A stretch of 32,640 nucleotides of DNA from a virus. The position numbers were made by a program, and so were the translations under genes. The notes beneath the pieces were generated by a model. The model was not told where the DNA came from, did no database searches, and saw only the letters and a program-made list of their open reading frames with translations. Position 1 is the stretch's first letter; the number at the start of each line of letters is the position of its first letter. Positions 1 through 16,055 of this stretch are shown piece after piece. The stretch is from positions 1 through 32,640 of the IMG/VR virus record IMGVR_UViG_3300022562_000294, one strand, 5' to 3'.

Positions 1-282
1 AGAGTTCAAGGGCTTCCAGAACTAATCCCAGTTGCGTTCTTTGCTAGGAAGCCTGTCCAGCTAACTGACGATGAACTGGACGAGCACCTGAAAGACATTC
101 AAGTCCTAATCAAAAACAATGAGCGCTATGCGGAGCAGAACTATTGGCCGAAGAACACCAAGGCCTGTCGGTTTTGTGACTATCGCGATATTTGCAAGAA
201 ATCACCGCAGTTGCGCTCAGCATTTCTTTCAACCGAGTTTGAACTAGACCGAAGAACTGTCTTGAATCCAAGAAGGGACTGA
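1..282 (+). CDS. PD-(D/E)XK-type nuclease, C-terminal end only (partial)
   Basis: The frame is open from the left edge and stops with TGA at 280-282, so about 93 C-terminal residues are visible. Near the end is a cysteine cluster, CRFCDYRDIC, following an N-x3-aromatic stretch. This C-x2-C-x5-C arrangement is typical of the Fe-S C-terminus of Cas4/RecB/AddB-like PD-(D/E)XK nucleases in phage recombination modules. The catalytic core would lie outside the window, so the family call rests on this cysteine cluster and on the neighbouring RecA/Sak4-like ATPase. The next gene starts 1 nt after the stop, suggesting one operon. A likely role is 5'-3' or strand-resecting nuclease in recombination-dependent replication. 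That role is inference. Confidence 0.6.
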   Translation, partial: RVQGLPELIPVAFFARKPVQLTDDELDEHLKDIQVLIKNNERYAEQNYWPKNTKACRFCDYRDICKKSPQLRSAFLSTEFELDRRTVLNPRRD

Positions 283-283
283 A

Positions 284-523
284 ATGGCTAAATTCGTTGA
301 ACTAACTTACCACAACAATTATAACGACGAAGATAGATTGTGCTACATAAATCCAGACAAGGTAATATCTGTCTGGCCTGGAAAGCCAACAATAGAGGGT
401 TGTCCAACCAGCCTCATCACAGTGCCGATCTCAGAAAGTGGTCATATAGTTGACTACATGGTGCTTGGCGAGCCTAGTGACGTAGTAGAACAACTGGAGG
501 CCACTGATGGGAAAACTGAGTGA
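284..523 (+). CDS. Small hypothetical protein, FlbD-like shape
   Basis: This is a 79-residue soluble protein with no signal peptide or membrane segment. It contains YINPDKVISV, then a short beta-rich middle, and a C-terminal VVEQL helix. The pattern (a 'Y-I-N-P-x-x-I' strand, a second strand and a terminal V-x-E-x-L helix) resembles the small FlbD-like fold found in many phages, but I cannot assign a function. The start follows the upstream nuclease stop by 1 nt. The stop overlaps the ATPase start by 17 nt, so translation is probably coupled. It is most likely an accessory of the recombination module. Confidence 0.6.
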   Translation: MAKFVELTYHNNYNDEDRLCYINPDKVISVWPGKPTIEGCPTSLITVPISESGHIVDYMVLGEPSDVVEQLEATDGKTE

Positions 524-1373
524 TCGTAAGAAAACCAGACTTCTAAAAATGATTGGCATAGGGAACCCTTCCACAGGTAAGACCGGATCTCTAGCCTCGC
601 TGGCAAATGAAATGTCTAGTTTTGGTCTTGAGCGCATTATCATCGCAGACTGGGACGACGGCGCAGAAGTACTCTTGAACTATGTTAAACCTGAAGCCCA
701 AGAAAAGGTCTTTGTCGAAACCTTCCGAGATCAACTGAAACCCTCCGTAGACGGCTCGCCGCCAGTTGTCCTGGGATCTGATACTGGGAACCTAACCGGC
801 CTGAAGATGAAAATGGCCTGGGCTCGCGGTATGCAGATGATGAACAACTGGAAGACCAAAGACTATGATCTTGGTCGTGCAATCGAGTGGGGTCCAGAAA
901 CCCTCTTCGTCTGTGACACCCTGACTGGCCTGGGCGATGCAGGGATGAACTTTGCCCAAGCAATTCTACAAAAGGATGCTTGGTCTGGAACTGGCACGGC
1001 AATGGACTTTCAAGATAAGTTCACTCAAATGTGCCAAGGCTTAAAGTGCCATTTCATCATGTTCTGCCACATAAGGTATATGGGTGGTGGAGGCCAAATC
1101 AGCATTGTAGATAAAGACGGAAAGCATACCTACACGAAAGAGGTAGATTCTGCCGTCGAGGGAACTGCCTATCCTAGTGCCCTCGGAAGAAAACTGCCAA
1201 CCGAAATTGCCAGGCACTTTAACACCCAGCTTTCATGGGAACTGAAGAACAAAAAGCGGGTCGTTCTGACCAAGGGATCAGAGCAACTGCCGCTAAAGAT
1301 TCCTATGAATCTCCCGAGCGAACTTCCACAGGAAACAGCACTCGTAACAGTTTTCAAGGAGCTATTGAAATGA
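507..1373 (+). CDS. RecA/Sak4-like P-loop ATPase
   Basis: The protein has 288 residues. A Walker A motif, GNPSTGKT, lies at residues 19-26. A Walker B-like strand, TLFVCDTLTG, lies near residue 130, and further RecA-fold strands follow (HFIMFCHI). The single-domain size and the early P-loop fit the phage AAA/RecA-like group that includes Sak4 single-strand-annealing ATPases. This group normally works with a dedicated SSB in recombination and replication. A GGAGG ribosome site at 496-500 precedes the ATG. Neighbours agree: a nuclease upstream and a possible SSB-like protein two genes downstream. Its stop overlaps the next start (ATGA). Sak4 membership rather than a more general AAA ATPase is an inference. 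Confidence 0.75.
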   Translation: MGKLSDRKKTRLLKMIGIGNPSTGKTGSLASLANEMSSFGLERIIIADWDDGAEVLLNYVKPEAQEKVFVETFRDQLKPSVDGSPPVVLGSDTGNLTGLKMKMAWARGMQMMNNWKTKDYDLGRAIEWGPETLFVCDTLTGLGDAGMNFAQAILQKDAWSGTGTAMDFQDKFTQMCQGLKCHFIMFCHIRYMGGGGQISIVDKDGKHTYTKEVDSAVEGTAYPSALGRKLPTEIARHFNTQLSWELKNKKRVVLTKGSEQLPLKIPMNLPSELPQETALVTVFKELLK

Positions 1374-1612
1374 GCATACTGGAAGGAGGGGTGGGCCTAG
1401 GCCGAGCTGATATAGCTGACTTTGCTCAACCACAGCCCTGCGCTCCAATGACTATCGACAATCGGATCAAGGATCTAGAAATGAGAGCTAACGCAATGAC
1501 AGAGAAGCTCGCCATTGCAGAGACTGTTTACACTAGGCTTATTGCCGAAGTGAACAATCTTAGAAATCAACTAGGCATCCCTGAATTGGACAGAAACTAC
1601 TTTCTGCCCTAA
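1370..1612 (+). CDS. Small coiled-coil hypothetical protein
   Basis: The protein has 80 residues. The frame stays open upstream inside the ATPase gene, but the ATG at 1370 is the better start. It overlaps the ATPase stop as ATGA and has an AAGGAG site about 8 nt upstream. The N-terminal 30 residues are glycine/proline-containing. From about residue 32 onward the sequence looks like a single long amphipathic helix (IDNRIKDLEMRANAMTEKL and continuing), ending in LGIPELDRNYFLP. The function is unknown. It may be a small oligomeric accessory to the ATPase, judging only by coupling. Confidence 0.6.
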   Translation: MSILEGGVGLGRADIADFAQPQPCAPMTIDNRIKDLEMRANAMTEKLAIAETVYTRLIAEVNNLRNQLGIPELDRNYFLP

Positions 1613-1615
1613 GAT

Positions 1616-1637
1616 GTTAGCGGGATAAACCGCTAGC
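1616..1637 (+). other. Intergenic stem-loop
   Basis: An 8-bp stem pairs 1616-1623 with 1630-1637 (GTTAGCGG with CCGCTAGC, one T-G wobble) around the 6-nt loop GATAAA. It starts 4 nt after the upstream stop. It is followed by AC-rich, unstructured sequence with an AAGGAG ribosome site at 1666-1671 for the next gene. There is no U-tract, so a simple rho-independent terminator is unlikely. An mRNA-processing or stability element is possible. Confidence 0.45.
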
Positions 1638-1677
1638 TTAACCGCAAGACAAGACAAGAACAAACAAGGAGAACGAA

Positions 1678-2130
1678 ATGTCCGAAGCACCGCAAGACTT
1701 CTCAGATCTACTCAATACCTCGGCTGAGGACGCAGTAAGGCCGCCTGCGAGGCCCGGCGGAACCTACCGCGCAACCTTCAAGTCTAGTGCTGACACAATC
1801 AGCACGAAGAAGAGGACTCGAGGACTGGAGTTCACCTTCAGCGACCTCGAACCCCTCTCTGACGTGAATCAGGAGGCCTGGGATAACTACATCTCCAGTC
1901 CTGCTGTGAAACCCGAGGAGGATACGATGACGGACACCTTCTGGATTACCCAGAAGTCCCTCTACCGTATCCGCGAGTTCTGTGAAGCGTGTGGAGTCAA
2001 GCCCGAGGGTAAGACTATCATTCAAATGGTAGGCGACGCCCTGGGTGAGAGAGTTCTTCTGACCGTTCAACAGACCGTTGGCGAAAAGGGAACCTTCTCA
2101 AACATCACGGGCTACGCGAAGGACGAGTAA
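1678..2130 (+). CDS. Hypothetical protein, candidate single-stranded-DNA-binding protein
   Basis: The protein has 150 residues and a strong ribosome site (AAGGAG, 1666-1671). The N-terminus is acidic and flexible. A beta-rich core contains YRATFKSS and GLEFTFSDLEPL, then TFWITQKSLYRIREF and a final VLLTVQQTVGEKGTFSNI. The alternating beta strands and a C-terminal 'V-G-E-K-G-T-F-x-N' hairpin suggest an OB-like or DUF669-like phage DNA-binding protein, but no family motif is decisive. Codon choice is notable: C-ending codons (ttc, atc, tac, acc, aac) dominate, unlike neighbouring genes but like the capsid gene. That suggests high expression, as expected for an SSB. Its position beside a Sak4-like ATPase supports the same guess. 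Confidence 0.5.
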   Translation: MSEAPQDFSDLLNTSAEDAVRPPARPGGTYRATFKSSADTISTKKRTRGLEFTFSDLEPLSDVNQEAWDNYISSPAVKPEEDTMTDTFWITQKSLYRIREFCEACGVKPEGKTIIQMVGDALGERVLLTVQQTVGEKGTFSNITGYAKDE

Positions 2131-2137
2131 GGACAAA

Positions 2138-2192
2138 GGCAGGGGTCAAGAGAGGCGTTCTCTCCAGTACGTCCCGGCGCTTGGCCCCTGCC
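2138..2192 (+). other. Long intergenic stem-loop
   Basis: The arms GGCAGGGGTCAAG (2138-2150) and CTTGGCCCCTGCC (2180-2192) pair over 13 bp with one G-U. They enclose a 29-nt loop that can form a small AGAG/CTCT hairpin. The element starts 7 nt after the SSB-like gene and sits just before the repeated palindrome at 2202. The following TGAGTCTTATATTTAC is AT-rich but has no clean U-run, so it may be a weak terminator, a processing site or a structured leader. Confidence 0.55.
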
Positions 2193-2201
2193 TGAGTCTT
2201 A

Positions 2202-2231
2202 TATTTACAGTGACACGGTGCCTGGTAAATA
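2202..2231 (+). promoter_or_regulatory. Repeated palindromic site, copy 1
   Basis: The core GACACGGTGCCTGGTA (2212-2227) is flanked by a perfect inverted repeat, TATTTAC (2202-2208) and GTAAATA (2225-2231). The same 16-bp core recurs at 10160, 31490 and, on the minus strand, 20957-20942. This copy sits immediately upstream of the ParB-methyltransferase gene. A TTTACA box 16 nt from TAAATA, with TG one base before it, could act as a promoter with an extended -10. Alternatively it is an operator for a dimeric protein. Confidence 0.55.
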
Positions 2232-2250
2232 CCAGGGTTGGGGGAACCTT

Positions 2251-3747
2251 GTGGCTACAGAGAACCGGCTAAGATTAATTCCGACAGCGTGTATTCAAAT
2301 ACCTGAGGACCGTCAAAGAAAAGATATTTCGCAAGAGCACCTAGAGGATCTAAGAACCTCTATCATGCGCCCTGCAGGCCTCTTGAATCCCATCATAGTT
2401 CGCCCTAATGGCGAGGACCGCTTTGTCCTTGTAGCTGGCGAATGCAGGCTAAAAGCCTGGAAACAAATAGAAAACTTCCCACCCGAAATAAGTGCCAAAT
2501 ACCGCAAAGGTATCCCTGCCCGGCTTCTATCAGATTTAACTCCAGATGAGCTTTTTGACGTTGAGTTCGAGGAGAACTATCGACGCAAGGACTTATCTTG
2601 GCAAGACCAGTCCGTGGCCTTCTGGGAACACTTCCAGCGCCAGCAAAATCGCTACGAAGTAGAAAGAGCAGAAGCTCTGGAAGATCCCAACGAAAACGAA
2701 GAGGACTGGCCCGAAGAGATAACCTTTTCTCAGGCCGCTGGTGCTATCGCAATATCTTCCAGACACTACAGGCGCATGGTCACAGTAGGTCGCAAGGTTA
2801 TCGAGGGCGATCCAGAGATCTTGGCCTGCGATTCTGCTCGTGCTGCTGGGGCACTTCTAGAGCGCCGCATGAAGCGAGTAGCCGAGAACGAACTGGCTAC
2901 CTTTGGTGAAATCGAGGCGGACATTGAAGATGACCTAGATCAACTCAGTGGCCCGTCTGACGAAGATCTAGAGGGCCTAGAAATTGAACTTGGGGGTGAG
3001 TTCAGTGAGCCAAGTCCAAAAGCAAGAGCCACAAAGTGCTTTGTCTTTAACCAGAGTTTTAAGGCTTTCATCGCAGAAGCTAAAGACGTTAAAGATAGGC
3101 GACGATACAACTTTGTTCATTGTGATTTCCCATACGGCAAAGGTCTACACGAAAGCGATCTTTATAATACAGAAGCCAAGGATATGTCCTACGAGGACAC
3201 ACCAGAAATATACTGGGCACTCTGTAATGACCTTCTGTTGGCGAAAGCGGCCGGGATTCTATCGGCCTCCTGTCACATCATGTTCTGGTTCCCAATGAAT
3301 TTCTACACTGAAACTGTTAAGCTATTTTCAGATGAGGGCTTCCGTGTCGAACCGTACCCGCTGGTTTGGATCAAGAGTGACAAAATGGGCATCATACCTG
3401 ACCCGGCGAGGGGGCCGAGAAGAATCTACGAAACAGCTCTCATCATGTCATTGGGAGATAGAAAGATCATCAGGCCCACCGTCAACGGAGCCTGGTATTC
3501 GAGTGGACGAAGAACCGACGCGCTTCATGTCAGCTCAAAGCCAACAGAAATGCTTCTGGACTTCTTTAGGATGTTTGTTGATGAGGACTCTATCGTACTT
3601 GATCCAACTTGCGGTAGTGGTACTGCTCTGGAAGCTAGTTTACAGTTGCGCTGCAAGTTTGCTGTCGGACTAGACATTAACGAAGAGTGTGTAGATCACT
3701 CATTGGAGAGAGCCAAGAGTGCTCAAATCAAATCTGAACTTGAATAG
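2251..3747 (+). CDS. ParB-domain / DNA methyltransferase fusion protein
   Basis: The protein has about 498 residues. The frame is open from a GTG at 2218, but that GTG lies inside the palindromic site and has no ribosome site. The GTG at 2251 follows GGGGGAACCTT and begins directly with the ParB strand (LRLIPTACIQIPEDRQRKD), so I chose it. The N-terminal 120 residues are ParB/Srx-like (LVAGECRLKAW, EENYRRKDLSW). A helical HTH-like middle follows (ITFSQAAGAIAISSRHYRR), then an acidic linker. The C-terminal half is a beta-class amino-methyltransferase: motif IV HCDFPYG precedes motif X-like SSKPTEMLLDFF and motif I LDPTCGSGTALEAS. Motif IV reads DFPY rather than the usual DPPY. It probably methylates adenine N6 or cytosine N4, for protection against restriction or for regulation. 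Confidence 0.85.
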   Translation: MATENRLRLIPTACIQIPEDRQRKDISQEHLEDLRTSIMRPAGLLNPIIVRPNGEDRFVLVAGECRLKAWKQIENFPPEISAKYRKGIPARLLSDLTPDELFDVEFEENYRRKDLSWQDQSVAFWEHFQRQQNRYEVERAEALEDPNENEEDWPEEITFSQAAGAIAISSRHYRRMVTVGRKVIEGDPEILACDSARAAGALLERRMKRVAENELATFGEIEADIEDDLDQLSGPSDEDLEGLEIELGGEFSEPSPKARATKCFVFNQSFKAFIAEAKDVKDRRRYNFVHCDFPYGKGLHESDLYNTEAKDMSYEDTPEIYWALCNDLLLAKAAGILSASCHIMFWFPMNFYTETVKLFSDEGFRVEPYPLVWIKSDKMGIIPDPARGPRRIYETALIMSLGDRKIIRPTVNGAWYSSGRRTDALHVSSKPTEMLLDFFRMFVDEDSIVLDPTCGSGTALEASLQLRCKFAVGLDINEECVDHSLERAKSAQIKSELE

Positions 3748-3757
3748 GAGGAATAGA

Positions 3758-4129
3758 GTGGCTAGGGGGGAGCTAGTTTACATTGAGAGCCCTTACGCAG
3801 GGGATGAAGAGTTCTCAGTAGAGGATCACATCGAATATGCTAAGCTGTGCATGAAAGACTCTTTAGAACGAGGTGAGCATCCATTCGTATCTCACCTCTT
3901 ATATCCTCAGGTCTTAGACGACTTGACGCCTGACGAGCGCCGCCAGGGAATGAAAGCAGGAGAGGCCTGGGCGGGTTACGCAGATCTCAGGGCCGTCTAT
4001 GTAGACCAAGGGCAAAGCCGAGGAATGGATTGGGGAATAAGTCGTGCAGAAAAACAAGGCCAAAGAATCGAATACAGATCGCTCTACGAAAAACGAGAAC
4101 GCGAGGAAGAAGCAAGAGAGCGAATGTAA
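3758..4129 (+). CDS. Nucleoside 2-deoxyribosyltransferase-like protein (DUF7768/DUF4406-like)
   Basis: The protein has 123 residues. The frame opens upstream, but the GTG at 3758 follows a perfect AGGAGG (3746-3751) and gives the expected N-terminal strand VYIESPYAGD. Features of the family are the early 'Y-I-x-S-P-Y' strand, a helix with EYAKLCMKDSL, then PFVSHLLYPQVLDD, the WAGYADLRAVYVD strand and SRGMDWGISRAEKQG. This pattern matches the small NDT-like phage proteins that may act on nucleotides or nucleosides. The true substrate cannot be read from the sequence. The last 86 nt overlap the next gene in another frame. Confidence 0.65.
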   Translation: MARGELVYIESPYAGDEEFSVEDHIEYAKLCMKDSLERGEHPFVSHLLYPQVLDDLTPDERRQGMKAGEAWAGYADLRAVYVDQGQSRGMDWGISRAEKQGQRIEYRSLYEKREREEEARERM

Positions 4130-4286
4130 ATACTGCATGAGAGCAAGGACTAATTACGGAAAACAGACCATGTGCCCGGAAGTATCAAAGCTAGGATCTC
4201 TCTGCACTAGGCCAACTAATCACACCGGGCCTCATGTGGCCTGCGGGCTCATAGCCCACGATTACGAGAGATGGGAAAACAACTAA
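4044..4286 (+). CDS. Small cysteine/histidine-rich putative zinc protein
   Basis: The GTG at 4044 gives 80 residues, and an in-frame ATG at 4137 would give 49. The longer form contains ECKYC, a C-x2-C pair. Both forms contain the motif SLCTRPTNHTGPHVACG, seen in small phage proteins as C-x2-P-x2-H-x2-P-H-x2-C, followed by HDYERW. These residues could bind zinc. The 5' part overlaps the preceding gene by 86 nt in another frame, and its lysine/asparagine-rich N-terminus may not be translated. The choice of start is uncertain. It is a DNA-metabolism neighbour with unknown role. Confidence 0.5.
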   Translation: MQKNKAKESNTDRSTKNENARKKQESECKYCMRARTNYGKQTMCPEVSKLGSLCTRPTNHTGPHVACGLIAHDYERWENN

Positions 4287-5389
4287 TGCCCTACATGGAC
4301 ACTAGTAACAAGGTCGAAGTTCCTAGCTATTTTCCCTCCATCAAAAATGGCCTGGCCTTCGTGGCTCAGAGCCCTGGGAAAAACGAGGTAGAACAACTCA
4401 GGCCCCTGGTTGGAGCCAGTGGCAAACTCCTGAGGGATCTATGTCAAACAGCTGGCATAGATTTCAACCTGTGTTCACTGTTGAACGTAGTCAATTTCCG
4501 CCCCCCAGGAAATGACTTCCAGTTCTTCTGTGGCAAGAAGGCTGACGTGGGAGGCAAGGACTATCCCCTTCCTCCCATCGCCTCAGGAGTTTACCTCAGG
4601 CCCGAATACTTTAACCAGCTAGACAGATTAAAGGCAGAACTAGAAGCCCTTAAGCCCAACCTAGTAGTTGCCCTCGGCCGCGAAGCTCTCTGGGCTCTAA
4701 CGGGATTAAGTGGAATTAACAAATATCGCGGCTCTGTGATGGAATGCAAGCTGGTTCCTGGGCTTAAAGTTCTTCCCACATTTCATCCAGCCGGGATCTT
4801 CAGAAACTATGGAAACAAAATCTATCTGACTCTAGATTTATTTAAGGCCAAAGCAGAACTCAAGTTCCCAGAAATAAAAAGCATCGAACGCGAGATGCAC
4901 CTCTATCCAGAGAGCCCTGGAGAACTCTGGGAGTGGCACGACAATAACCAGTATCGCTTCGGCCACGATCCGCTTCTATCTGTGGATATTGAGGACCGAA
5001 CTTCTAAGGGCCAAAAAATCATCGAGTGCATTGGCTTTGCTTTCAGTCCCTTCAACGCTCTAGTAGTTCCATTCTGGTCAGACCTTCGCCAAGATCATAA
5101 CTACTGGCTGAGCGAAGACGATGAACTCAGAGCCTGGGAGTTCGTCGATTATATGCTTACTAGCTATCCTGTCCTGGGCCAGAACTATATAGCCTATGAC
5201 ACCTGGGTACTACTAAAAGAAATGGGCTTAAAGACCTTAAATCTTGCTGAAGATACAATGATCCAGCATCATGCCTTTCAGCCTGAAATGCAAAAAGGGC
5301 TTGGGGTCCTAGCGAGCATCTATTGCAACGTCCCAGCCTACAAGACCATGAAGCCACGCGGCAAACGTGCCGCTAAGCGAGATGAATAA
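4271..5389 (+). CDS. Uracil-DNA glycosylase domain fused to DNA polymerase I-type 3'-5' exonuclease (N-terminal part of a split polymerase)
   Basis: The protein has 372 residues (alternative ATG at 4286). Residues about 25-200 resemble a family-4-like UDG: FVAQSPGKNE (usual G-E-x-P-G altered to A-Q-S-P-G), NVVNFRPPGN and PTFHPAGIFRN. The N-terminal C-x2-C of Fe-S UDGs is missing. Residues about 230-355 form a DnaQ-like proofreading domain: Exo I SVDIE (D239, E241), Exo II GQNYIAYD (N305, D310) and EDTMIQHHAF. Exo III (Y-x3-D) is absent here but present at the start of the polymerase gene at 6786. UDG-exo-pol fusions are known in some phages (SPO1-type polymerases, from memory). The basic tail KPRGKRAAKRDE ends the polypeptide, where a continuous enzyme would carry on. 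The two halves probably assemble. Confidence 0.8.
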   Translation: MGKQLMPYMDTSNKVEVPSYFPSIKNGLAFVAQSPGKNEVEQLRPLVGASGKLLRDLCQTAGIDFNLCSLLNVVNFRPPGNDFQFFCGKKADVGGKDYPLPPIASGVYLRPEYFNQLDRLKAELEALKPNLVVALGREALWALTGLSGINKYRGSVMECKLVPGLKVLPTFHPAGIFRNYGNKIYLTLDLFKAKAELKFPEIKSIEREMHLYPESPGELWEWHDNNQYRFGHDPLLSVDIEDRTSKGQKIIECIGFAFSPFNALVVPFWSDLRQDHNYWLSEDDELRAWEFVDYMLTSYPVLGQNYIAYDTWVLLKEMGLKTLNLAEDTMIQHHAFQPEMQKGLGVLASIYCNVPAYKTMKPRGKRAAKRDE

Positions 5390-5417
5390 ACTAACTCCCA
5401 CAGGAAAGGAACAAGGT

Positions 5418-5990
5418 ATGGAACGCATTAAAGTCAAGATCGTAGGAATTAGCCCGCTTCTGATGAACAAGTTTACTGATGAAGCACAAATGAAGGCCAC
5501 GAAGGGTACAGGCTCTTCACAAGTAGGCACTAGGCCCAGTCCTGAAGAAGATGCTGAGAGCAGGCTGTATTATGACGAGGGCGGCAATATCATTATGCCG
5601 CAACCAAACATATACAACTGTTTAATCAATGCAGGCAAGTTCCATAAGCATGGAAAATCTAAAGTAACTACTCTTAGAACAAGTCTGATTCCTGCTGGCA
5701 TCTTTATGAACGAGATGTACTACAAGCTCGAATCAGAAGGTGGATGGTCAGTAGATGCCAGACCAATTCGGAATCCGGTAACTGGCGGCAGAATTATTCG
5801 CTATCGTCCTGTATTCTATGACTGGTCAGTCAGTTTCGAGCTTGAAGTCGATACTGAGATGTTCAGCATTGATATGGCTCGTCAGTTCATGGACGATGCT
5901 GGAAAGAAAATTGGCCTCTGTGACTTCCGGCCAGACTGTCGTGGTCCGTTCGGAAGGTTCAGGGTTGATAAGTGGGAACGTGTAAAATGA
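5418..5990 (+). CDS. Hypothetical protein with N-terminal 'GISPLLMNKF' strand
   Basis: The ATG at 5418 has an AAGGA site 7 nt away and gives 190 residues. Longer in-frame starts at 5367 and 5382 overlap the exonuclease gene and add no plausible domain. The protein opens with a beta strand and loop, IKVKIVGISPLLMNKF. It has a flexible charged stretch (residues about 25-50), then alternating strand/helix segments including NIYNCLINAGKFHKHGKSK, TTLRTSLIPAGIF and RYRPVFYDWSVSFELEVD. It ends CDFRPDCRGPFGRFRVDKW. I do not recognise an enzyme. The order suggests a nucleic-acid-binding beta-alpha fold, and its stop codon directly abuts the pentanucleotide tract, so it is a candidate binder of it. That link is inference. 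Confidence 0.6.
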   Translation: MERIKVKIVGISPLLMNKFTDEAQMKATKGTGSSQVGTRPSPEEDAESRLYYDEGGNIIMPQPNIYNCLINAGKFHKHGKSKVTTLRTSLIPAGIFMNEMYYKLESEGGWSVDARPIRNPVTGGRIIRYRPVFYDWSVSFELEVDTEMFSIDMARQFMDDAGKKIGLCDFRPDCRGPFGRFRVDKWERVK

Positions 5991-6307
5991 GGCGGGGTAC
6001 GGTGAGCTGTGGCTAGTTCCGGCGCGCTTTGGACTGGTGCGGTAAGCCGAGGTTGTGTCGGCCAGCGTTCGGCTGGGTACGCCACTCTTTCGCGGGGCTG
6101 GGTGTGGTGTGTTTAGCTATGGTAAGGTGTGGCGCGTCACGCTTTGGTCGGGTCGGGTTGTCTCGGGTTGGCCTCGCTCCGGTACGGTATGGACTAGGAG
6201 AGGTCCGGCTGGGTGGTGCTAGGTATGGTTTAGGCAATGCTAGGCGCGTTCGGGCGAGGTACGGTCCTGTCCGGTAGTGCAAGCTATGGCTCGCTTGGGT
6301 TAGGCAT
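5991..6307 (+). repeat. Phased degenerate pentanucleotide tract, GGYNN x about 63
   Basis: The interval between two genes divides into consecutive 5-mers, G-G-Y-N-N. Three blocks keep phase: 5991-6195 (41 units), 6197-6231 (7 units) and 6233-6307 (15 units). They are separated by single inserted A residues at 6196 and 6232. Position 3 is C or T in 60 of 63 units, position 1 is G in the large majority, position 2 is usually G, and positions 4-5 vary freely. The tract starts on the base after a TGA stop and ends in the ATG of the next gene. Open frames exist on both strands across it, but their compositions follow the repeat. I treat it as non-coding. The period is not a multiple of 3. Confidence 0.9.
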
Positions 6308-6638
6308 GGGAACTGAAGATTTCTTGAATCCTGATGGATCTTGGAAGTGCATCAAATGTGGTGCGTGCTGTTACACTGTTGCAACTGCATACCCCCATCT
6401 AGATCGCAACGACGGAACAGGCCGCTGTATCCATCTAACAGAGGAGAATCTTTGCGCGATCTACGAAAACAGACCAGAGCTGTGCAGGGTGCCAAAGGCC
6501 CTAGGAACTTCGATTCCTGACAAGATGGCCGAGGCCTGTGATCTATTGAGAACTGTGTTCTTAGGGGGTGAGGGTGAAGTGCTTCAAGTGCCAGAGGGAA
6601 CCAGAGGAACTGATCGAATACCAAGACGCCGCAAGTGA
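6306..6638 (+). CDS. CxxCxxCC-type metal-binding protein (YkgJ-like)
   Basis: The ATG at 6306 lies in the last repeat unit and gives 110 residues. The frame stays open further upstream only through the repeat tract. The protein contains CIKCGACCYTV (C-x2-C-x2-CC), then DGTGRCIHL, LCAIYENRPELCRV, the arrangement of the YkgJ/CxxCxxCC zinc- or iron-chelating family. The exact role of that family in phages is unknown. No good Shine-Dalgarno sequence precedes the start, apart from the G-rich repeat itself, so the tract may influence its translation. The 3' end overlaps the next gene by about 65 nt. Confidence 0.75.
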   Translation: MGTEDFLNPDGSWKCIKCGACCYTVATAYPHLDRNDGTGRCIHLTEENLCAIYENRPELCRVPKALGTSIPDKMAEACDLLRTVFLGGEGEVLQVPEGTRGTDRIPRRRK

Positions 6639-6789
6639 GAGCGGCATGAACATAAGGGACTACGTTAAATTCGAGGAAGGAACTTATGACCCGCAAACAG
6701 ACTATTTCCTCTGTACGCCTTGCTATATTAATCTAGATATGCCAATCATGCCAGAGATCCTAATGCTCTACCAAAAGGGTTATCAATGA
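6574..6789 (+). CDS. Small putative zinc-ribbon protein
   Basis: The GTG at 6574, 6 nt after an AGGGGG site (about 6562-6567), gives 71 residues. A GTG at 6568 adds two. C-x2-C pairs flank the protein: CFKC at the start and CTPC about 45 residues later. This fits a small zinc ribbon, although the family is unknown. It overlaps the preceding gene by about 65 nt in another frame. It overlaps the polymerase start by 4 nt (ATGA), implying coupled translation with the polymerase. Confidence 0.6.
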   Translation: MKCFKCQREPEELIEYQDAASESGMNIRDYVKFEEGTYDPQTDYFLCTPCYINLDMPIMPEILMLYQKGYQ

Positions 6790-8294
6790 AGATAGTTAAA
6801 ACATCAGAACTAACAGACTATCTAAGGGCCTCTAGTCCTGACGCGAAGCTCTGGATCTATAACGCCTTCGACGTTATGCTTCCTTTGGAAATCTTCGAGG
6901 AAGTCAAGTCCAGAATGACTGAAAACCAAAAACATACCTACCGCTTTGAGAAAGCCCTACAAGGCCCGGCCTTCTCTATGATGCAGAATGGCATCAAAGT
7001 AGATATGGCTCTCTTAGCACAAGAGACTAAGCGCGCCAAAAAGGAACTAGAAGATCTAGAATCCTACGTCAGGTCTTTAGCCATTGCCGTTTGGGGAGAT
7101 GGAATCAACGTAAGATCTCCAGCTCAGATGTGCCAGCTATTCTATCTCGATCCTAATGGATTTCAATGCCAAAAGCACTACGAGGGTGTCGGCCAGAAGC
7201 GCCACCTAACTACTAACAGAAAAGCTTTAGAAAAGATCTACACCACAAACTATATAACTCGGCCGCTAATCAAGGCCATGTTTGCCCTTAAAGATATTCA
7301 AAAAGAAATCGAGTTTCTAGAACGAGGAGTCGAGCCCGATGGCCGTGTTCACTGTAGCTTTAATGTCGCTGCGACCGAGACAGGACGCTGGTCAAGTTCA
7401 AAGAATCCTTGGGGACGTGGAGCTAATTTCCAAAATCAGGGCGAAAAGACTCGGAGCATATACCTTGCTGACGAGGACTTCATCTTCGCATACCCCGATC
7501 TATCGCAAGCAGAATCTCGGGCTGTGGCTTACTATTCGGGAGACAAGAATTATATTAGGGCTGTGGAATCTGGAGACCTCCACACGCAAGTCGCTAAGCT
7601 CGTATGGCCAGAGCTTCCGTGGACGGAAGATCCAAAAAGTGATAGGGAGATAGCCGATGGGCCTTATTACAGACATTTTTCCTATCGTGATATGTCGAAG
7701 CGTGGAGGACACGCACTCAACTACCTCGGACAACCCTATACGATTGCATCCCATCTTAATCTCGAAAGGGAGCAAGCGGAAGATTTCTACTCACGTTACT
7801 TTGGAGCGTTCCCAGACATTGCAGAATGGCATAATCGAGTACAAATTGACCTTCAGAATACCGGCCGACTTACAACTGCACTTGGACGAGAACGGATGTT
7901 TTTTGGTAGACTCGACGATAACCACACGCTCAAAGAAGCGATAGCATTCTTGCCACAGAGTCTAATTTCAGACATTCTAAAGATCGGAACACTTTACATC
8001 TGGAAAGAGTTTGAGCTTAAGCGTCGCTGGGCCAAACTCTGTGGTGATCTACATGACGGGCTACTAATGCTAATCAAGAAGATTCATCTCGACGAGAGCG
8101 CTCCTATTATGATTCAGATGATGGAGCAGAAAGTTAAAATGCCACACGGAGTTATGAAGATTCCCGTAGACTTCACAGTAGGCTATAGATGGCAGAAGAA
8201 AGAGATGCTAAAATGGAAGCCAGGAATTTTAGCACAACTAAAACCTATCACTCCCACAGACAATCTATTGGACATTAAAGCCACGGACGTTTAG
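6786..8294 (+). CDS. Family-A DNA polymerase, polymerase domain plus Exo III motif
   Basis: The protein has 502 residues. Residues 23-35, WIYNAFDVMLPLE, match the Exo III Y-x3-D motif (Y25, D29) and helix that close a PolA proofreading domain whose other motifs are in the 4271 gene. Polymerase motif A, YPDLSQAESR, is near residue 235. Motif B, RDMSKRGGHALNY, is near 301-313 and has the conserved R, K and Y. Motif C, DLHDGLL, is near 420. The usual Glu after the motif C Asp is Gly (H-D-G). The O-helix position corresponding to E. coli Phe762 appears to be His, as in several phage enzymes (from memory). There is no 5'-3' exonuclease domain. It replicates phage DNA, probably paired with the UDG/exo subunit. 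Confidence 0.85.
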   Translation: MKIVKTSELTDYLRASSPDAKLWIYNAFDVMLPLEIFEEVKSRMTENQKHTYRFEKALQGPAFSMMQNGIKVDMALLAQETKRAKKELEDLESYVRSLAIAVWGDGINVRSPAQMCQLFYLDPNGFQCQKHYEGVGQKRHLTTNRKALEKIYTTNYITRPLIKAMFALKDIQKEIEFLERGVEPDGRVHCSFNVAATETGRWSSSKNPWGRGANFQNQGEKTRSIYLADEDFIFAYPDLSQAESRAVAYYSGDKNYIRAVESGDLHTQVAKLVWPELPWTEDPKSDREIADGPYYRHFSYRDMSKRGGHALNYLGQPYTIASHLNLEREQAEDFYSRYFGAFPDIAEWHNRVQIDLQNTGRLTTALGRERMFFGRLDDNHTLKEAIAFLPQSLISDILKIGTLYIWKEFELKRRWAKLCGDLHDGLLMLIKKIHLDESAPIMIQMMEQKVKMPHGVMKIPVDFTVGYRWQKKEMLKWKPGILAQLKPITPTDNLLDIKATDV

Positions 8295-8308
8295 AGGGGT
8301 GTTGGGGG

Positions 8309-9517
8309 GTGAGAAAGTGTGACAACTGGCTTAAGAGCTGGTTGGAATACTCTTCGAGTTGGGAGTCGCCAGAGCGGTTTAGGCTGTGGTCAGGGATAGC
8401 TGCAATTAGCGCGGTAACACAAAGAAGATTGTTTACTTATGTCAAAGGACAGCAGTTATTTCCGAACACTTATATTTTGCTCATCGGATCTCCCGGTTCT
8501 GGAAAAGGCAACGCCATGAAATACCTGGCCCAGTGGCTCAAGGACTTCGATGGAGAGTTTTTTAGAATGGCCCCTGACGGGCTAACTAAAAGAGCCTTTT
8601 ACATGACCCTCGAAGGCGCAAAGGTTATGCCGGGAGGAGATCCAAATAACGAGCAGCATTCATTAACTGCCTTCATTGAAGAACTCGGAGTCTTTCTTCA
8701 TCCAGGAGACAATGACTTTGTTTACGCACTTTGCCACGTCTATGACTGCCCAAAGAAATTTCACTATAAGACGGCTAGCGCAGGTGAAAACTTTGCCAAC
8801 AATGCCTGTTTCACAATGCTTAGTGCGTGTACGCCCAAAGCGCTACGTGATATCTACACTGAAGATGCGATGGAGTTGGGAATTAGCGCACGAACTATCA
8901 TTGTTTATGCAGACGATAAGATCGAAGTCCCAATCTTCGGAAAGCCAGAAAACCACGACAAGCTCGCAAAAGACCTAAAGTATGATTTAGCTAGGATGCT
9001 CGAAACCGAAGGAGAATATCAGTTTGACGAAGAGGCCGCCCAAGCTCTAGTCGATTGGGCCGCAACAGACTTCGCGCCTAAGCCGAAGGACTCCAGGTTT
9101 GAGCACTACAATTCAAGAAGGTTTGTCCAAATAGTAAAGCTCTGTATGATATGTGCGCTCTCCAAACGAGACGATCCTATAATTCTAATAGAGGACTTCA
9201 ATCAAGCCAGGGATATGCTACTAGAGTGCGAGCGCTATATGCCAAAGGCTATTGAAACCTTGGGAGCCAATCCTCTGCTAATGCAGCGTAACGCATCCAT
9301 GTTACTCATAAACGAGAACTTCAGAAAACTTAACGCTCCAACACATGAGCATGACTTAAGACGCCTAATGGAGCGTGATGTACCAATACAGTTTCACGAT
9401 GAAATGCTCGATCAGCTAGAGAAAGGTAAATGGGTAAGTGTCATAGGGTCAAAGCCAGATAGGCTTTTCTACCCAAGAGGCAAGCACATAATGGAGAAGA
9501 AGAAAGATGAAAACTAG
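8309..9517 (+). CDS. DUF3987-like P-loop ATPase, putative helicase/primase-associated
   Basis: The protein has 402 residues. The GTG start follows a GGGGGG site. After an N-terminal helix with a tryptophan-rich patch, PNTYILLIGSPGSGKGN supplies a Walker A at about 60-68. The final Ser/Thr of the P-loop is Gly here. Residues 118-127 (LTAFIEELG) are the likely Walker B. A basic, helical C-terminus resembles a winged-helix (ENFRKLNAPTHEHDLRRLM). The layout 'W-x-A-I-S, PN-x-Y-x-L-L-I-G-x-P-G-S-G-K' is the DUF3987 pattern. That family is often linked to primase or helicase modules. Its position after the polymerase fits a replicative ATPase role, inferred only. Confidence 0.65.
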   Translation: MRKCDNWLKSWLEYSSSWESPERFRLWSGIAAISAVTQRRLFTYVKGQQLFPNTYILLIGSPGSGKGNAMKYLAQWLKDFDGEFFRMAPDGLTKRAFYMTLEGAKVMPGGDPNNEQHSLTAFIEELGVFLHPGDNDFVYALCHVYDCPKKFHYKTASAGENFANNACFTMLSACTPKALRDIYTEDAMELGISARTIIVYADDKIEVPIFGKPENHDKLAKDLKYDLARMLETEGEYQFDEEAAQALVDWAATDFAPKPKDSRFEHYNSRRFVQIVKLCMICALSKRDDPIILIEDFNQARDMLLECERYMPKAIETLGANPLLMQRNASMLLINENFRKLNAPTHEHDLRRLMERDVPIQFHDEMLDQLEKGKWVSVIGSKPDRLFYPRGKHIMEKKKDEN

Positions 9518-9917
9518 AAACATTATTCTACTGGCAATCTTTGGAGTTATCCTCATCGCTGTTGGAATCTTCGGAATAGTAGAGGTAGCTAAAAGCCAAA
9601 CGCCAACCCCGAGGCCCAATGTACCTCTACTTCAAACGGGAGGCATTTACAACGCAGGCTGCCAGCCAGTCGAGCCCTTTGATACCGTCGTTAAGGCCTG
9701 CTGGGTAAGGACAGACACTACAGAACCTCAGGAGCTTGGTTGTGTAGATTCTATCGGCGGGGCTGAAGCCAGAATGGATCTCAACATGATAATTAACGTC
9801 AATGAGGTTGCCGAGGTCCGATGCTACGTTGTAAGTGAACAGGGAGTTCCTTCGGACTATTCTGAGAACGCAGGCATAGTGGATTTTACGCAGCCAGGGC
9901 GGCCTTTTGTCAGATAG
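9507..9917 (+). CDS. Membrane-anchored or secreted protein with Fn3-like end (0-frame product)
   Basis: The protein has 136 residues and overlaps the preceding gene by 11 nt. Residues about 6-28 are a hydrophobic segment (IILLAIFGVILIAVGIFGIV) followed by AKSQTPTPRP, so it is either cleaved or an N-terminal anchor. The outer part has cysteines and an Fn3-like ending: AEVRCYVVSEQGVPSDYSEN, then IVDFTQPGRP, as at the end of Fn3/Ig-type domains. The 0-frame stops at TAG (9915-9917). Immediately downstream the -1 frame encodes a dockerin/EF-hand-like motif, listed separately. It is likely exported or displayed, but its role is unknown. It is unlike the DNA-metabolism genes around it. Confidence 0.65.
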   Translation: MKTRNIILLAIFGVILIAVGIFGIVEVAKSQTPTPRPNVPLLQTGGIYNAGCQPVEPFDTVVKACWVRTDTTEPQELGCVDSIGGAEARMDLNMIINVNEVAEVRCYVVSEQGVPSDYSENAGIVDFTQPGRPFVR

Positions 9918-10042
9918 CTCCAGTTGTTTGCGCCGACCTGGATGGGGATGGATCTGTGGGCTATTCGGACTTCGGCAAATGGGCTCAACAGTACGGAAGA
10001 TGCCACAACAATAAGGAGGAAATACCGTGTCCGGTAAACTGA
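9866..10042 (+). other. -1 frame extension with a dockerin/EF-hand-like loop
   Basis: The -1 frame is open from 9866, overlaps the parent gene for 51 nt, and continues to TGA at 10040-10042. It encodes DLDGDGSVGYSD, a 12-residue loop with Asp at 1, 3, 5 and 12, followed by FGKWAQQYG, as in dockerin type I-like repeats. A -1 slip on a TTTT run (9905-9908 or 9884-9887) would join it to the Fn3-like protein. It has no start codon of its own with a ribosome site. The next gene starts at 10027, overlapping by 16 nt. The alternative is an inactivating indel. Confidence 0.6.
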
Positions 10043-10404
10043 AAGAAGGAGTCATAGCCACGCTTTTGATAGCGCTTATATGCCTTCTTATCCTTGTGTT
10101 CTACGCCAGGAACTCCAAGGCTGGAGATGAAACTCTGAGAGCGTACTTGTATTTACAGGGGCACGGTGCCCAGTATTTACAATACTATTTACCTTCGCAG
10201 TCCGCGCATCTCCAACCTACGCTGGGTAACGTAATCCTCATACTGCCGCTGGGTGACAGTCTGGGTCATGTTCCTTATCCTGGCATCAGCGGATCTCTGT
10301 ACACTATCAATGGGAACAGCGTATTCCCAAGCAGCTTCATTTACAATCCGCTGAACTTCGCGCCAGTCCCGATTCAGTTCGGCATCAGCCCATCGGCGCC
10401 CTAG
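10027..10404 (+). CDS. Small membrane protein, tail of the rightward arm
   Basis: The GTG start has a perfect AAGGAGG at 10013-10019. Residues 8-27 are a transmembrane helix (VIATLLIALICLLILVFYAR). About 40 residues in, the frame runs into the repeated palindrome (10149-10192). It then continues for about 70 residues antisense to the end of the 10189-14535 gene. That C-terminal part looks like a shadow of the convergent gene, so the functional unit may be only the first 40-45 residues and the stop may have been lost. A holin-like or signalling role is possible but unsupported. Confidence 0.45.
   Translation: MSGKLKEGVIATLLIALICLLILVFYARNSKAGDETLRAYLYLQGHGAQYLQYYLPSQSAHLQPTLGNVILILPLGDSLGHVPYPGISGSLYTINGNSVFPSSFIYNPLNFAPVPIQFGISPSAP
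10149..10192 (+). promoter_or_regulatory. Repeated palindromic site, copy 2, at the convergent junction
   Basis: The core GGCACGGTGCCCAGTA (10160-10175) contains the 13-bp palindrome GGGCACGGTGCCC. TATTTAC occurs three times, at 10150-10156, 10174-10180 and 10186-10192, spaced 24 and 12 bp apart. The site lies just where the rightward and leftward transcription units meet, and the last TATTTAC overlaps the stop of the leftward gene. Confidence 0.55.
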
Positions 10405-13400
10405 TCTCTGAATGGCCTCACGCTTTTTCTCTGCGTCGTACCTTGCATTCTGATGAACCTCAAATGCATTTGCGACTCGGGTGGGCGTGAGGCCCAGAGA
10501 TCTAAACGTGCCCTCAAAAGCGTTAAGGGCAGGCAGCAGAGTATTTCCGCTATTCAAACTAGTTACTCCCATTTCGCCAAACGAGGTCATAGCCCGTTGC
10601 AGCGTTCTGGGAGCAAAGGCCTTAAGCATCTCTCTTCTGAACTTCGGGTTCTGTAGTGGAATCCTAAAGTCCTTAATATCTTCGATTCCAGTGCCAACCA
10701 AATCTCCGAGGCCCATGAACCGATCCAGAATACTAATGTTCGAGAACATCACCAGATCAGTTGCCAAATGGCTCGAAGGCAACGAAGCCCGAGACCTTAG
10801 GGTAAATCCGAGGTTACTGAAAAACCCGTGCATCATCATATCTGCCAGCCAAGGCTTAGAAGTATCACCTGGATCGTTTCCAACCCAGTCATAAACCAGA
10901 TCGCTCAACGGCTTATCAGACAAAAACCTTGACATTGAATCCGCCGCGCCCGCCAAGGGCACCGCTGAGAGCCCGCCTACGGCCCCTGCCGTGCCAAACG
11001 TCCACGCCAAGGGACCGAAGTTCCCCCTGGAGGCTTCCGCCGTGTACCGGGCCAAATTGCCCGTATAATTAGCGGTCCAGTTCTTAAAGAGCCCCCAACC
11101 AGCACCAATAGCTCCAGTCAGCATCCTTGGCCGATCAGCCGCGCTGTAGCCAAACATAGTGTTATTGACAAACTCTTTAGCAAAGACCCGAGCCTCATTC
11201 TCGCCCATGAGGAAAAAGTCCTTAGCAACCTGACGGCCAAGCATAAAGCTATAAGCCCTGGAAGCCTCTTCAGTAGCCACCACAGGCGCTTCAGAAATTC
11301 TCCTGAGGTTATCCCAGAAACCACCCTGGCCTTGAGTCAAGGACCTAGAAGGTCCGTGGACTGTTTCTACGAAATCCCTACCAACCGTGTGAGTGTCAAA
11401 CGCCCACTGGAGCGCCTCTCTGTCACTGGCATCTGGCCGCCAAAGTTTGCCCATAGACTCCCTGGCAAATTTCCAAGTGTCCATGAATCTAACAGGCCTT
11501 AGACCGCCATCAGTGGTCTTAACCATAACACTAGAGTAATACTTCTGGATCATCTCCGGAGCGGCATTGAGCAAATAGCTAACCTCTGGGATAGCCGTCT
11601 GGAGCGGAGTAATAAGATTCAATGCCGCGAAGCCCATATCGAGAGCGCCTAGGGTCAACGTGAACATAGCCTCATTTACGTGCTTAACTGCCCGCTGCGC
11701 TACGCCAGGCCCAAAGTAATCTGCCAGTGCCGTGTCAATCAGACCATCCAGCTGCGCGGCAATAGGCCCACTGGCCCCGGAATACGAGTTCAGAATCCGC
11801 GCCAGTGTAACGAAAGAAGCAGAATCTTCATTAGCCAGCCTCGATAGCTGTTCTTGCATCGGCCCGACTGCAATTCCTTCTCGAGCCAGATACCTGCCCA
11901 TCTCAGTCACGCCAGCCGCGTAGTTAGCCTTGATCTCATCAATAGTCACCTTGTTAGCGCGCTGCTGCGAAAGCCGGCCACCCAAGAGTCCTTTAGATCT
12001 CTTAAATCGAATAGGGTCATTCCTAAACATCTGTGCCCTGAACTTAGAGATCTGTTGAACCAAAGGATTCCTCAAATCCAAATCAGCCGCGAATCCGAAA
12101 ATGTCTGCCTGTGAACTAGAGACATCTGTGGGAATACCTGTTCTTTCAAGAAACTTGTCAATCGGCAATTTAGCCTTAAACTCTACACTACCAGCATGGA
12201 GAATATCTTTATCGGTTAATTGGTCTCCATAGGTCTTAAAGAGCTTAGGTTTACCCGCCGCCTTCGCTTCATTATTAAGGGCCTCGATGATCTCAATAGC
12301 ATCTTTTCTTGCCTGTTCCCTAGTGTAACCAGAACCATAGCCTCGAACCACTCCAGTAGAATCTTCAACGATCCTGGCTCTGAACGGCCCGATCCACTGC
12401 TGCGCCAAACCAAGGTGACCCTCTTGCGGAACGAAAGTAGTCTCTGTGCCTAGCGCTTGCGCCTGATCAGCAACTTGATCTATCCAGAACTTATTTCCCT
12501 TCTCCATCTCTTCTGCGACGCGAATAGCCTCAGGATGCAAGCCCTTAGCCTTAGCCTCTTCAATAGGCATTCGAGTCATTCTAATCTCAAAGAAATCATC
12601 AAGTGCTTTTTCTGAAGAGCCAAGTCCTTTTTCGATGCTCTGCAAAATCCCACCCTCTCGCCTAGCAGTAGGATTAAGTGCAGTTCTAAAGATATTCCCA
12701 ACGGGATTGCCCTGGCCCTGAAAACTCCTGCTAATTCTCCCCAAGAGATGATCGTTAACCATAGCCTGCATGGTATCGAAAACATCCTTAGAGAACATAA
12801 GAGCCATGCTGAGTCGAGGATTCTGGCCACCCTGAAGCCTAGAGGGCGCGGCTACAATTCTCAGAACATTAGCCGCTTCACTCAAATAGTTAAGTGTAGG
12901 TTGCGAGGCCTCCCTGACTTCTTGAGGCAAAAACCGTTCAACCATGAGCCTTAGCTTTCCTACCTCAGCAGGAACATTCGGATCAGTGCTAAATCTGGTC
13001 TTACCTGTGAACAGGGACTGTTGAGCCGGATTATAAATCCCTGCCTTATTCTCGATCATATTAAGGATCGGAACTCGAGCATCTTCTATGTCTTTAGACC
13101 TATACCACTTGCGCTGCAAATTGTTATAAGCCTTGGCATTTGTCTCATAGACCCCACTGGCCTTTGGAAACCACTTAGTAGGATTATTAGTCTTAAAGAT
13201 AAAGTAATTCCCACTATAAGGATCTAGGCGCTCTTTGGCTCTTTCCAAATAAGAACCCTTAGGACTATGCGGAAGCCGCTTAATCCCAATATAGAGCCCA
13301 TCTGAACTTTCCCTGGCCAACCAACCATTAGGCTCTACCTGATTGAATGGACCCTTAACGTCAGTCAAAGTCCTAATCAAACGATCTTTAGACTTGTCGC

Positions 13401-14535: not shown

Positions 14536-16055
14536 TATCTAATTCCTAGTCCGCCAAGCGCGGAAAGCGCATCAGTTGTACTCTGGACTCCCGGCAGCCC
14601 GAAGTTATCCGTCTGATATTCCAAGAGGAATGGATACTTGGGGTCTGTCGGATTAGCATTGTTCTCCAGGAACATATAGGCCATAGCACTAACAGCCTGC
14701 GCTGCCAGTGCTGCATCTGCATCTTTGTCAGTCCCAGGAGTGCCAGAAAACAGGCGCTCGACATTGGCTGCGAAATCCTCTCGGCCTTGTTCTTCGAGAG
14801 CCTCGATAAACATGGGCATGATATTAGGATTATTCATAGCCTGAATCGAGTGCATGACTGGCCCTTGAACGATAGGGCTAAGATTATCTAGCATCACGCT
14901 CTGGCCAAGTGCCACTCCAGTTCGCTCTGTTGTGCCCTTGAGAAACTCGTTAACCAAGAGGAAGCCCTGAAGAACTTCCAGCGGCGTCTGAGTTTCAATC
15001 CTTGCGATCTCTCCAGTGTCAGGAAAATATAGGCCACCTGTAACCGCGATTGGCCTGCGGTATCGGTTATTAGCATCAGAGATCTGAATTTGCATCTGGG
15101 CCTTGGTCAGTTCCCTCTGGTTAAACGCCTGAGCTTCTATTTCGCTCATCTCAGCCTTTTTCGCTTCTTCAGCCAAAGCGATAGAACTGAGCTGGCGCTT
15201 TCTAAGAGCTTCATTAGCCCTTGCCAGTTCTTCTAGTTGGCGATTCTCAGAGTGAATCCTCTGGGCCTCTTGAGCAAGCCCAGCCCCGGCTCCGGCAATG
15301 ACCTCGCCAAGCGAAGCGGCTGTTCCTGGCTTAGCATTTTGAATCGCCTGGAGCCCGCCTGCCGCGCCACCACCCAAAGCTGCTTGAAGGGCCTCATTAC
15401 GCCCAATCTGCTGAGCTTTAACTTCAGGTCCAAGAGCTTCTCTGGCTGCCGAGAAATCTGGAGCCTTGCCAGTTCTCAGGGCTGCTAGTTCTGGCATCTG
15501 GAGCGGATCATAGAAGTTCCTGCCCTGAAGCCCGGCAAGTGGATCTGCTTCGGGAACTCTGGCTACTGGAGCATCTTGAGGATTAATCCCTGGAGGAGCT
15601 GTTGGTGTTCCTGCTCCAGTTCCTCCCCCTCCAAGCCCCAACCATCTCATCAATGCTTGGTCAGCTGACTCTACAAGATCCTTACCTGTCCGTCCGCCAA
15701 CTAGAGTTCCAGCCAGCCCAGGAAGCGAGTTGAGTGCTCCTACGATCTTGTTGCCCTCCGTAGGATCAAGTCCGACAAGGCCCTGATTAGTTGCATTGAC
15801 GGCCAAGCCTCCTAGTGCTTGCGGGATCTTAGAAGCGCCCTGTAGGAAGCCACCCAAGACACCTGAATCTCTGACATTATTGCCAAACTTCTCAAGATCC
15901 GCACCGAGATAGTTAACTGCTCTGCGCCCAAGCTCGGTGTTCCCACCAAAGATAACATTCAGTTTGTTTCTTAGAATGTCATCAGGCGTCGGCGCTTGAA
16001 GAGTAGCATTTTGATCTTTGATAGGTCGAATGCTAACATTATAAGGGGCGACCAT
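14535..16055 (-). CDS. Internal virion protein, coiled-coil
   Basis: The protein has 506 residues. The N-terminal third is Gly/Ala/Pro-rich (ALMRWLGLGGGGTGAGTPTA). A long predicted coiled coil lies near 265-340, with repeated E/A/R/Q (LEELARANEALRKRQ, EEAKKAEMSEIEAQ). The last part is mostly helical (EFLKGTTERTGVALGQ). No catalytic motif was seen. The composition and the place between the 473-residue and 1,448-residue genes match medium-sized ejection proteins of T7-like and related podoviruses. Coordinated expression is implied by 1-nt overlaps at both ends. Confidence 0.6.
   Translation of the reverse strand: MVAPYNVSIRPIKDQNATLQAPTPDDILRNKLNVIFGGNTELGRRAVNYLGADLEKFGNNVRDSGVLGGFLQGASKIPQALGGLAVNATNQGLVGLDPTEGNKIVGALNSLPGLAGTLVGGRTGKDLVESADQALMRWLGLGGGGTGAGTPTAPPGINPQDAPVARVPEADPLAGLQGRNFYDPLQMPELAALRTGKAPDFSAAREALGPEVKAQQIGRNEALQAALGGGAAGGLQAIQNAKPGTAASLGEVIAGAGAGLAQEAQRIHSENRQLEELARANEALRKRQLSSIALAEEAKKAEMSEIEAQAFNQRELTKAQMQIQISDANNRYRRPIAVTGGLYFPDTGEIARIETQTPLEVLQGFLLVNEFLKGTTERTGVALGQSVMLDNLSPIVQGPVMHSIQAMNNPNIMPMFIEALEEQGREDFAANVERLFSGTPGTDKDADAALAAQAVSAMAYMFLENNANPTDPKYPFLLEYQTDNFGLPGVQSTTDALSALGGLGIR

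What the first reader, a model, noticed from the sequence alone, without database searches (positions are those of the whole stretch)
5991..6307. Phased GGYNN pentanucleotide tract fills a gene-to-gene gap
About 63 consecutive 5-mers share position 1 G, position 2 mostly G and position 3 C/T (60 of 63), while positions 4-5 are free. Phase changes only at two inserted A residues (6196, 6232). The tract starts right after a stop codon and ends at the next start. This is not a microsatellite, because units are not identical, and not a CRISPR or a coding repeat. Selection on a 5-nt spacing would suggest a protein that binds one unit per subunit, for example an annealing-type or other filament-forming protein, or a transcript with such a scaffold role. 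The adjacent GISPLLMNKF protein is a natural candidate partner.
Basis: seen in the sequence. Interest (0 to 1): 0.9.

Follow-up and report, generated by a model that had tools for sequence, protein, structure and literature searches.

The report
Phage RNA-guide array (VIPR type)
The odd five-letter rhythm is a stretch of guide RNA for VIPR, a recently reported CRISPR-like system of phages; one of its guides spells out the most conserved part of the integrase gene that rival phages use to enter bacterial chromosomes.

Summary
The tract is real: lag-5 G autocorrelation is 0.43 against 0.00±0.06 in dinucleotide shuffles. It is not unique. A DNA-only pattern scan of IMG/VR fetched 120 contigs, and 75 of them (plus the window) also carry a relative of the gene next to the tract. 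None of 135 loci fetched for other reasons carries either. The adjacent protein (5418-5990, phrog_4652) is homologous to SUSP1 Vipr (PDB 36pp) and folds like Csm3/Cas7 RAMPs. The locus is therefore a VIPR system (preprint PMC13142463, 2026): GGY/NN repeats form a vrRNA whose NN pairs recognise DNA with a 1-nt skip. New here: guide units 6-16 (6021-6075) spell, in reverse complement, HDLRHSFASNA, the conserved Arg-box of tyrosine integrases. Against 84 recombinases gathered without using the guide, the 7-unit word hits 9 (0 of 20,000 NN-order shuffles), only at skip 1 in codon frame. The closest relative (L002) independently spells the Tyr-box TTQRYAHL. The window's array is atypical: 41 units without punctuation, and no tail or vap gene recognised. 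Verdict: a new member of a known kind, with a testable anti-integrase target. Targets of other units were not found; nothing was bench-tested.

The parts
5418..5990 (+). vipr gene (190 aa, phrog_4652 family; RAMP fold)
   Evidence: Matches PDB 36pp 'SUSP1 Vipr protein': phmmer E 6.7e-10, family profile E 2.3e-43. AlphaFold model pLDDT 86.6; the 50 best Foldseek PDB matches are all CRISPR effector subunits, mostly Csm3/Cas7. phrog_4652 E 2.7e-29.
5991..6307 (+). GGY/NN vrRNA array, 63 pentamers in three phase blocks
   Evidence: Lag-5 statistics; unit list; same kind of tract beside vipr genes in viral contigs and annotated phages including SUSP1.
5991..6195 (+). 41-unit uninterrupted block
   Evidence: Sequence; phase-consistent runs over 20 units are a minority (about 30 of 358) in 95 tracts.
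6021..6075 (+). Predicted guide (units 6-16): NN read with 1-nt skip, reverse complement = HDLRHSFASNA, tyrosine-integrase Arg-box
6196..6196 (+). Inserted A, phase shift
   Evidence: Sequence.
6197..6231 (+). 7-unit block
   Evidence: Sequence.
6232..6232 (+). Inserted A, phase shift
   Evidence: Sequence.
6233..6307 (+). 15-unit block; reverse-complement reading [IM]Y[HQ][DE][IM][FL]LGGVSRAY[FL]; target not found
6306..6638 (+). Next gene, CxxCxxCC putative Zn/Fe-binding protein (PF03692); not recognised as a vap
   Evidence: Pfam E 5e-8; no homologue in the other fetched tract loci.

Best explanation
The region is a VIPR locus. The 5418-5990 gene encodes Vipr, a small RAMP protein, and the tract after it is the vrRNA (guide) region. 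Several Vipr subunits would bind the RNA, one per GGYNN unit, holding GGY and presenting NN to double-stranded DNA; each unit reads two bases and skips one. At least one guide (units 6-16, 6021-6075) is aimed at the conserved Arg-box of tyrosine integrases, with the skipped base on the codon wobble position, so that one guide can fit integrases of many competing or resident phages. Shown here: tract, homology, fold, gene-tract association, and the statistical match to integrases at skip 1 in codon frame. Inferred from the preprint: transcription into vrRNA, RNP formation, DNA binding and repression. Inferred only: that the integrase is the biological target, and that guides are packed head to tail without punctuation.
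For: Autocorrelation. DNA-only pattern scan yields tracts and vipr together: 76 of 121 loci including the window; 40 of 48 loci with tract score >=100; 0 of 135 control loci have either. Tract on the same strand as vipr in 75 of 76, usually starting within about 10 nt after the stop when 3'. Homology to SUSP1 Vipr in the PDB; RAMP fold. My scan recovers tracts at SUSP1, the preprint's model phage. Phase-consistent runs peak at 9-13 units, like the published 9-16. Integrase guide: 93 of 111 IMG/VR hits of the 8-unit word encode in-frame HDLRHSFA, against 15, 7 and 5 hits for other words; two 11-unit matches in 257 Gb of genomes are both integrases with HDLRHSFASNA; 84 recombinases gathered without the guide: 9 hit at 7 units, 0/20,000 shuffles, other frames and skips no hit at that length. 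L002 Tyr-box guide: 0/2000 shuffles.
Against: No 3' tail, no promoter and no recognisable vap gene in the window. The 41-unit uninterrupted block is longer than published guides. 24 of 63 units deviate from GGY. The integrase match covers 11 of 63 units; no match continues further, no specific rival phage was identified, and four other seeds found no target. No expression data.
Confidence: 0.93

Rival explanations
1. The tract is a VIPR-derived array that has lost function: a decaying vrRNA relic between two genes.
For: 24 of 63 units deviate from GGY; two phase-shifting A insertions; no tail (85-87).
Against: The vipr frame is intact and folds well; phase is held over 41 units and position 3 is 95% pyrimidine; an exact 11-unit integrase motif is preserved.
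Confidence: 0.1
2. The tract is a cis-acting operator: Vipr binds its own mRNA at GGYNN repeats and represses itself or the downstream gene, as TRAP does on NAGNN repeats.
For: 5-nt repeats directly downstream in the same transcription unit; the last unit overlaps the next start codon.
Against: NN positions spell integrase codons, which an operator does not need; tracts also lie upstream of vipr or beyond other genes; published vrRNAs are separate small RNAs (PMC13142463).
Confidence: 0.05
3. DNA-level or structural role (G-quadruplex, R-loop origin, annealing-protein site) unrelated to VIPR.
For: G-rich on the coding strand with regular GG spacing.
Against: Strong association with vipr; the fold of the transcript is no more stable than shuffles (z -0.93); NN carries gene-specific information.
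Confidence: 0.01
4. The integrase match of units 6-16 is coincidence.
For: Only 11 of 63 units match; found after looking at several seeds; the words tested are short.
Against: 0/20,000 shuffles at 7 units on a set gathered without the guide, only at skip 1 in codon frame; the closest relative independently spells the other integrase box.
Confidence: 0.07

Closest known systems
VIPR systems (Vipr + vrRNA; PMC13142463, bioRxiv 10.64898/2026.04.26.720920)
   Same: Vipr homologue with RAMP fold; GGY/NN pentamer tract flanking vipr on the same strand, phage-encoded; NN pairs match coding sequence with a 1-nt skip on the wobble base.
   Different: Single long intergenic array with a 41-unit run, no recognised tail, no recognised vap; Vipr only ~28% identical to SUSP1 and outside its clade; a guide to a conserved integrase box, whereas the preprint's main text names satellites and lysogeny regulators as targets.
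Class 1 CRISPR effectors (Csm3/Cas7 backbone with crRNA)
   Same: RAMP fold; by analogy, subunits repeated along a guide RNA.
   Different: No CRISPR repeats, no other cas genes recognised; 5-nt units with interrupted pairing.
TRAP (MtrB) with NAGNN RNA repeats
   Same: One protein subunit per 5-nt RNA repeat with two free spacer bases (own knowledge).
   Different: Different fold; spacers not informational; a closed ring with 11 repeats on its own leader RNA.

Membership tests
VIPR | Vipr protein: RAMP homologue of the Vipr family | tested here: met
   PDB 36pp SUSP1 Vipr E 6.7e-10 / 2.3e-43; RAMP fold by Foldseek.
VIPR | vrRNA region of tandem GGY/NN pentamers, GGY constant and NN hypervariable, beside vipr | tested here: met
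   39/63 strict units, position 3 Y in 60/63.
VIPR | 9-16 repeats per vrRNA | tested here: inconclusive
   Window blocks are 41, 7 and 15 units; the integrase match spans 11 units inside the 41-unit block. Guide ends cannot be seen without RNA data.
VIPR | Invariable structured 3' tail (described for type II) | tested here: not met
   No constant element between blocks or after the tract; RNA fold z -0.93. The preprint describes other array architectures, so this is not required of all types.
VIPR | vap accessory gene (typical, not universal) | tested here: inconclusive
   Neighbours are UDG/exonuclease and a CxxCxxCC protein; neither neighbours vipr elsewhere in the fetched set. The preprint's supplement with vap sequences was not readable.
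VIPR | NN pairs match target DNA with a 1-nt skip, skip on codon wobble | tested here: met
   Integrase match only at skip 1 in codon frame, for 11 of 63 units; remaining units unmatched.
VIPR | vrRNA expressed, bound by Vipr, represses DNA target | not testable with these tools
   Needs small-RNA sequencing, pull-down and reporter assays.
VIPR | Assignment to one of the seven types | tested here: inconclusive
   Tree: outside the SUSP1/LESphi2 clade, weak sister (85/35) of L002/L105/L059/L088; type references not available.
CRISPR-Cas class 1 | CRISPR repeat array and further cas genes | tested here: not met
   No tandem CRISPR repeats; no cas family among the window ORFs searched.
TRAP/MtrB regulon | MtrB protein and NAGNN repeats | tested here: not met
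   Neighbour is a RAMP; consensus is GGYNN.

The most novel reading that the evidence does not exclude
A VIPR variant in which guides are packed head to tail in one unpunctuated tract, read without tails, and aimed at the conserved catalytic boxes of tyrosine integrases, so that a few guides act against most temperate competitors rather than one specific rival.
Probability: 0.45. Interest if true: 0.65.

Novelty: new member of a known kind. Interest (0 to 1): 0.55.

Why it matters
VIPR was described only in 2026 and is proposed as an ancestor of class 1 CRISPR. This locus adds a divergent, apparently minimal example, independent support for the 1-nt skip code from environmental phages, and a concrete hypothesis: two VIPR arrays (window and L002) target the two catalytic boxes of integrases, a near-universal weak point of temperate phages. 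The skipped wobble base makes such a guide tolerant of synonymous change.

Tried and rejected
Rfam: nothing in the window and no hammerhead in 12 array loci at gathering threshold. Protein-pattern searches of viral contigs with the window Vipr or DNA polymerase: nothing. Megablast of window 1-20000 against phage genomes: nothing. Pseudo-peptide of the 41-unit block by tblastn in phages: nothing; PHROGs only insignificant matches. Target seeds for units 1-8, 17-24, 25-32 and the core of the last block: few hits, flanks at chance level, or none. Target scan of the first fetched loci at skips 0-3: no signal (the skip-3 matches are the tract itself). The many skip-1 hits of other arrays were partly low-complexity; after filtering the clear excess was L002 against integrases. 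The viral integrases among unrelated fetched loci were too few to test. TRAP-like operator, G-quadruplex and annealing-protein readings rejected as above.

Full report
Observation. The tract at 5991-6307 is as described: 63 pentamers in three phase blocks of 41, 7 and 15 units, separated by single A residues at 6196 and 6232. Lag-5 autocorrelation of G is 0.43; 2000 dinucleotide shuffles have mean -0.002, sd 0.057 and maximum 0.20. The signal persists to lag 25 and is unique in the window. Position 3 is C/T in 60 of 63 units; position 1 is G in 54 and position 2 in 46 (one search counted 62 units; the first unit is added from the sequence). It follows the stop of the 5418-5990 gene and runs into the ATG at 6306.

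Recurrence. A scan of IMG/VR with the DNA pattern (GGYNN)6GG alone returned at least 120 stretches. Many carry hundreds of bases of non-identical GGYNN units, up to about 1.5 kb. Clustering the ORFs showed that 76 of 121 loci, window included, encode a homologue of the window's 5418-5990 protein. Among loci with tract score 100 or more it is 40 of 48, and several exceptions are contig ends. In 135 loci (1.23 Mb) fetched for other patterns there is no homologue and no tract. Tract and gene are on the same strand in 75 of 76 cases; most often the tract is 3' and starts within about ten bases of the stop.

Identity. A literature search found PMC13142463 (bioRxiv 10.64898/2026.04.26.720920), which describes VIPR: a small RAMP protein, Vipr, with vrRNAs of 9-16 YNNGG repeats whose NN pairs recognise double-stranded DNA with a one-base skip, used between competing phages for transcriptional repression. 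The window protein matches PDB entry 36pp, 'SUSP1 Vipr protein', at E 6.7e-10 alone and 2.3e-43 as a family profile. Its AlphaFold model (pLDDT 86.6) is closest to CRISPR RAMP subunits in the PDB, mostly Csm3/Cas7; the fifty listed matches are all CRISPR effector chains. The same tract scan finds GGYNN arrays at SUSP1, LESphi2, UmaThurman, Saal and MakoManhole, and a weaker one at Vibrio 1.266.O. Phase-consistent runs in 95 tracts peak at 9-13 units, in line with the published guide length.

What this locus targets. Reading the NN pairs with a one-base skip and taking the reverse complement, units 6-16 (6021-6075) spell HDLRHSFASNA, the Arg-box of tyrosine integrases. The 8-unit word of units 9-16 has 111 IMG/VR hits, 93 encoding HDLRHSFA in frame; three other 8-unit words have 15, 7 and 5 hits with no extension of note. 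An 11-unit word has two hits in 257 Gb of genomes, both integrases with HDLRHSFASNA. Because those hits were selected by the guide, I gathered 84 tyrosine recombinases by Pfam PF00589 and by an actinophage integrase, leaving out the loci fetched directly from the two genomes found with the guide (a first version of the test that still held those loci is). The 6-unit word hits 19 and the 7-unit word 9; 3 and 0 of 20,000 NN-order shuffles do as well. The other two codon frames and skips 0 and 2 give nothing at 7 units. Caveat: the two genomes served as centres for choosing the classes searched, and most of the 84 are XerC/XerD-like, so the test concerns the motif, not a particular rival phage. 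Separately, the array of L002, whose Vipr is the closest to the window's, spells [KV]QTTQRYAHL, the Tyr-box of integrases: 24 of 102 integrases at 7 units, 0 of 2000 shuffles. That integrase set was selected on the Arg-box, so this second test does not depend on the selection. The window itself shows no integrase motif, but it is a 32.6-kb fragment of a phage with a DNA polymerase A and a primase-like replication module.

What differs from the described systems. The 41-unit block has no punctuation, while other arrays separate guides by a 4-nt GGCA unit or by conserved spacers. There is no structured tail (RNA fold z -0.93) and no neighbour shared with other vipr loci. In a tree the window's Vipr lies outside the SUSP1/LESphi2 clade, weakly beside L002, L105, L059 and L088. 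The integrase match lies inside the long block with mismatching units on both sides, which suggests guides packed head to tail; this is inference.

Judgement. The kind is now known, so this is a new member of VIPR. Transcription, binding and repression are inferred from the preprint. The integrase target is a computational prediction for 11 of 63 units; targets of the rest are unknown.

Noticed in passing
L002 3964-4575 (+): VIPR array whose guide spells the integrase Tyr-box TTQRYAHL in forward sense; blocks separated by a conserved spacer; an int-alpA RNA (RF02996) lies nearby at 1635-1704.
   Followed up: partly
L010, L012, L051, L058, L123 (UmaThurman), L124 (Saal): Arrays with blocks of about 9-14 GGYNN units separated by a 4-nt unit GGCA (GGCAGGY), with no other spacer.
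   Followed up: no
L003 639-1200 (-): About 12-unit blocks separated by a conserved ~55-nt hairpin-like spacer; no Rfam match at gathering threshold.
   Followed up: no
L086 7607-9175 (-), L025 6308-7012, L041 799-1423: Very long GGYNN tracts (up to about 1.5 kb), with long runs without phase change such as 53 units in L041 and over 100 units in L025 and L086.
   Followed up: no
L001 2558-3284, L011 8662-8858, L063 6053-6306, L110 489-830: Strong GGYNN tracts with no detected vipr homologue in the DNA held: cut contigs, or more divergent partner proteins.
   Followed up: no
window 4271-5389 and 6786-8294: Split DNA polymerase A: a UDG domain followed by the phrog_17 middle part in one gene, polymerase domain in another, with the vipr locus inserted between them.
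   Followed up: no
window 2218-3747: ParB N-terminal domain fused to a DNA methyltransferase domain.
   Followed up: no
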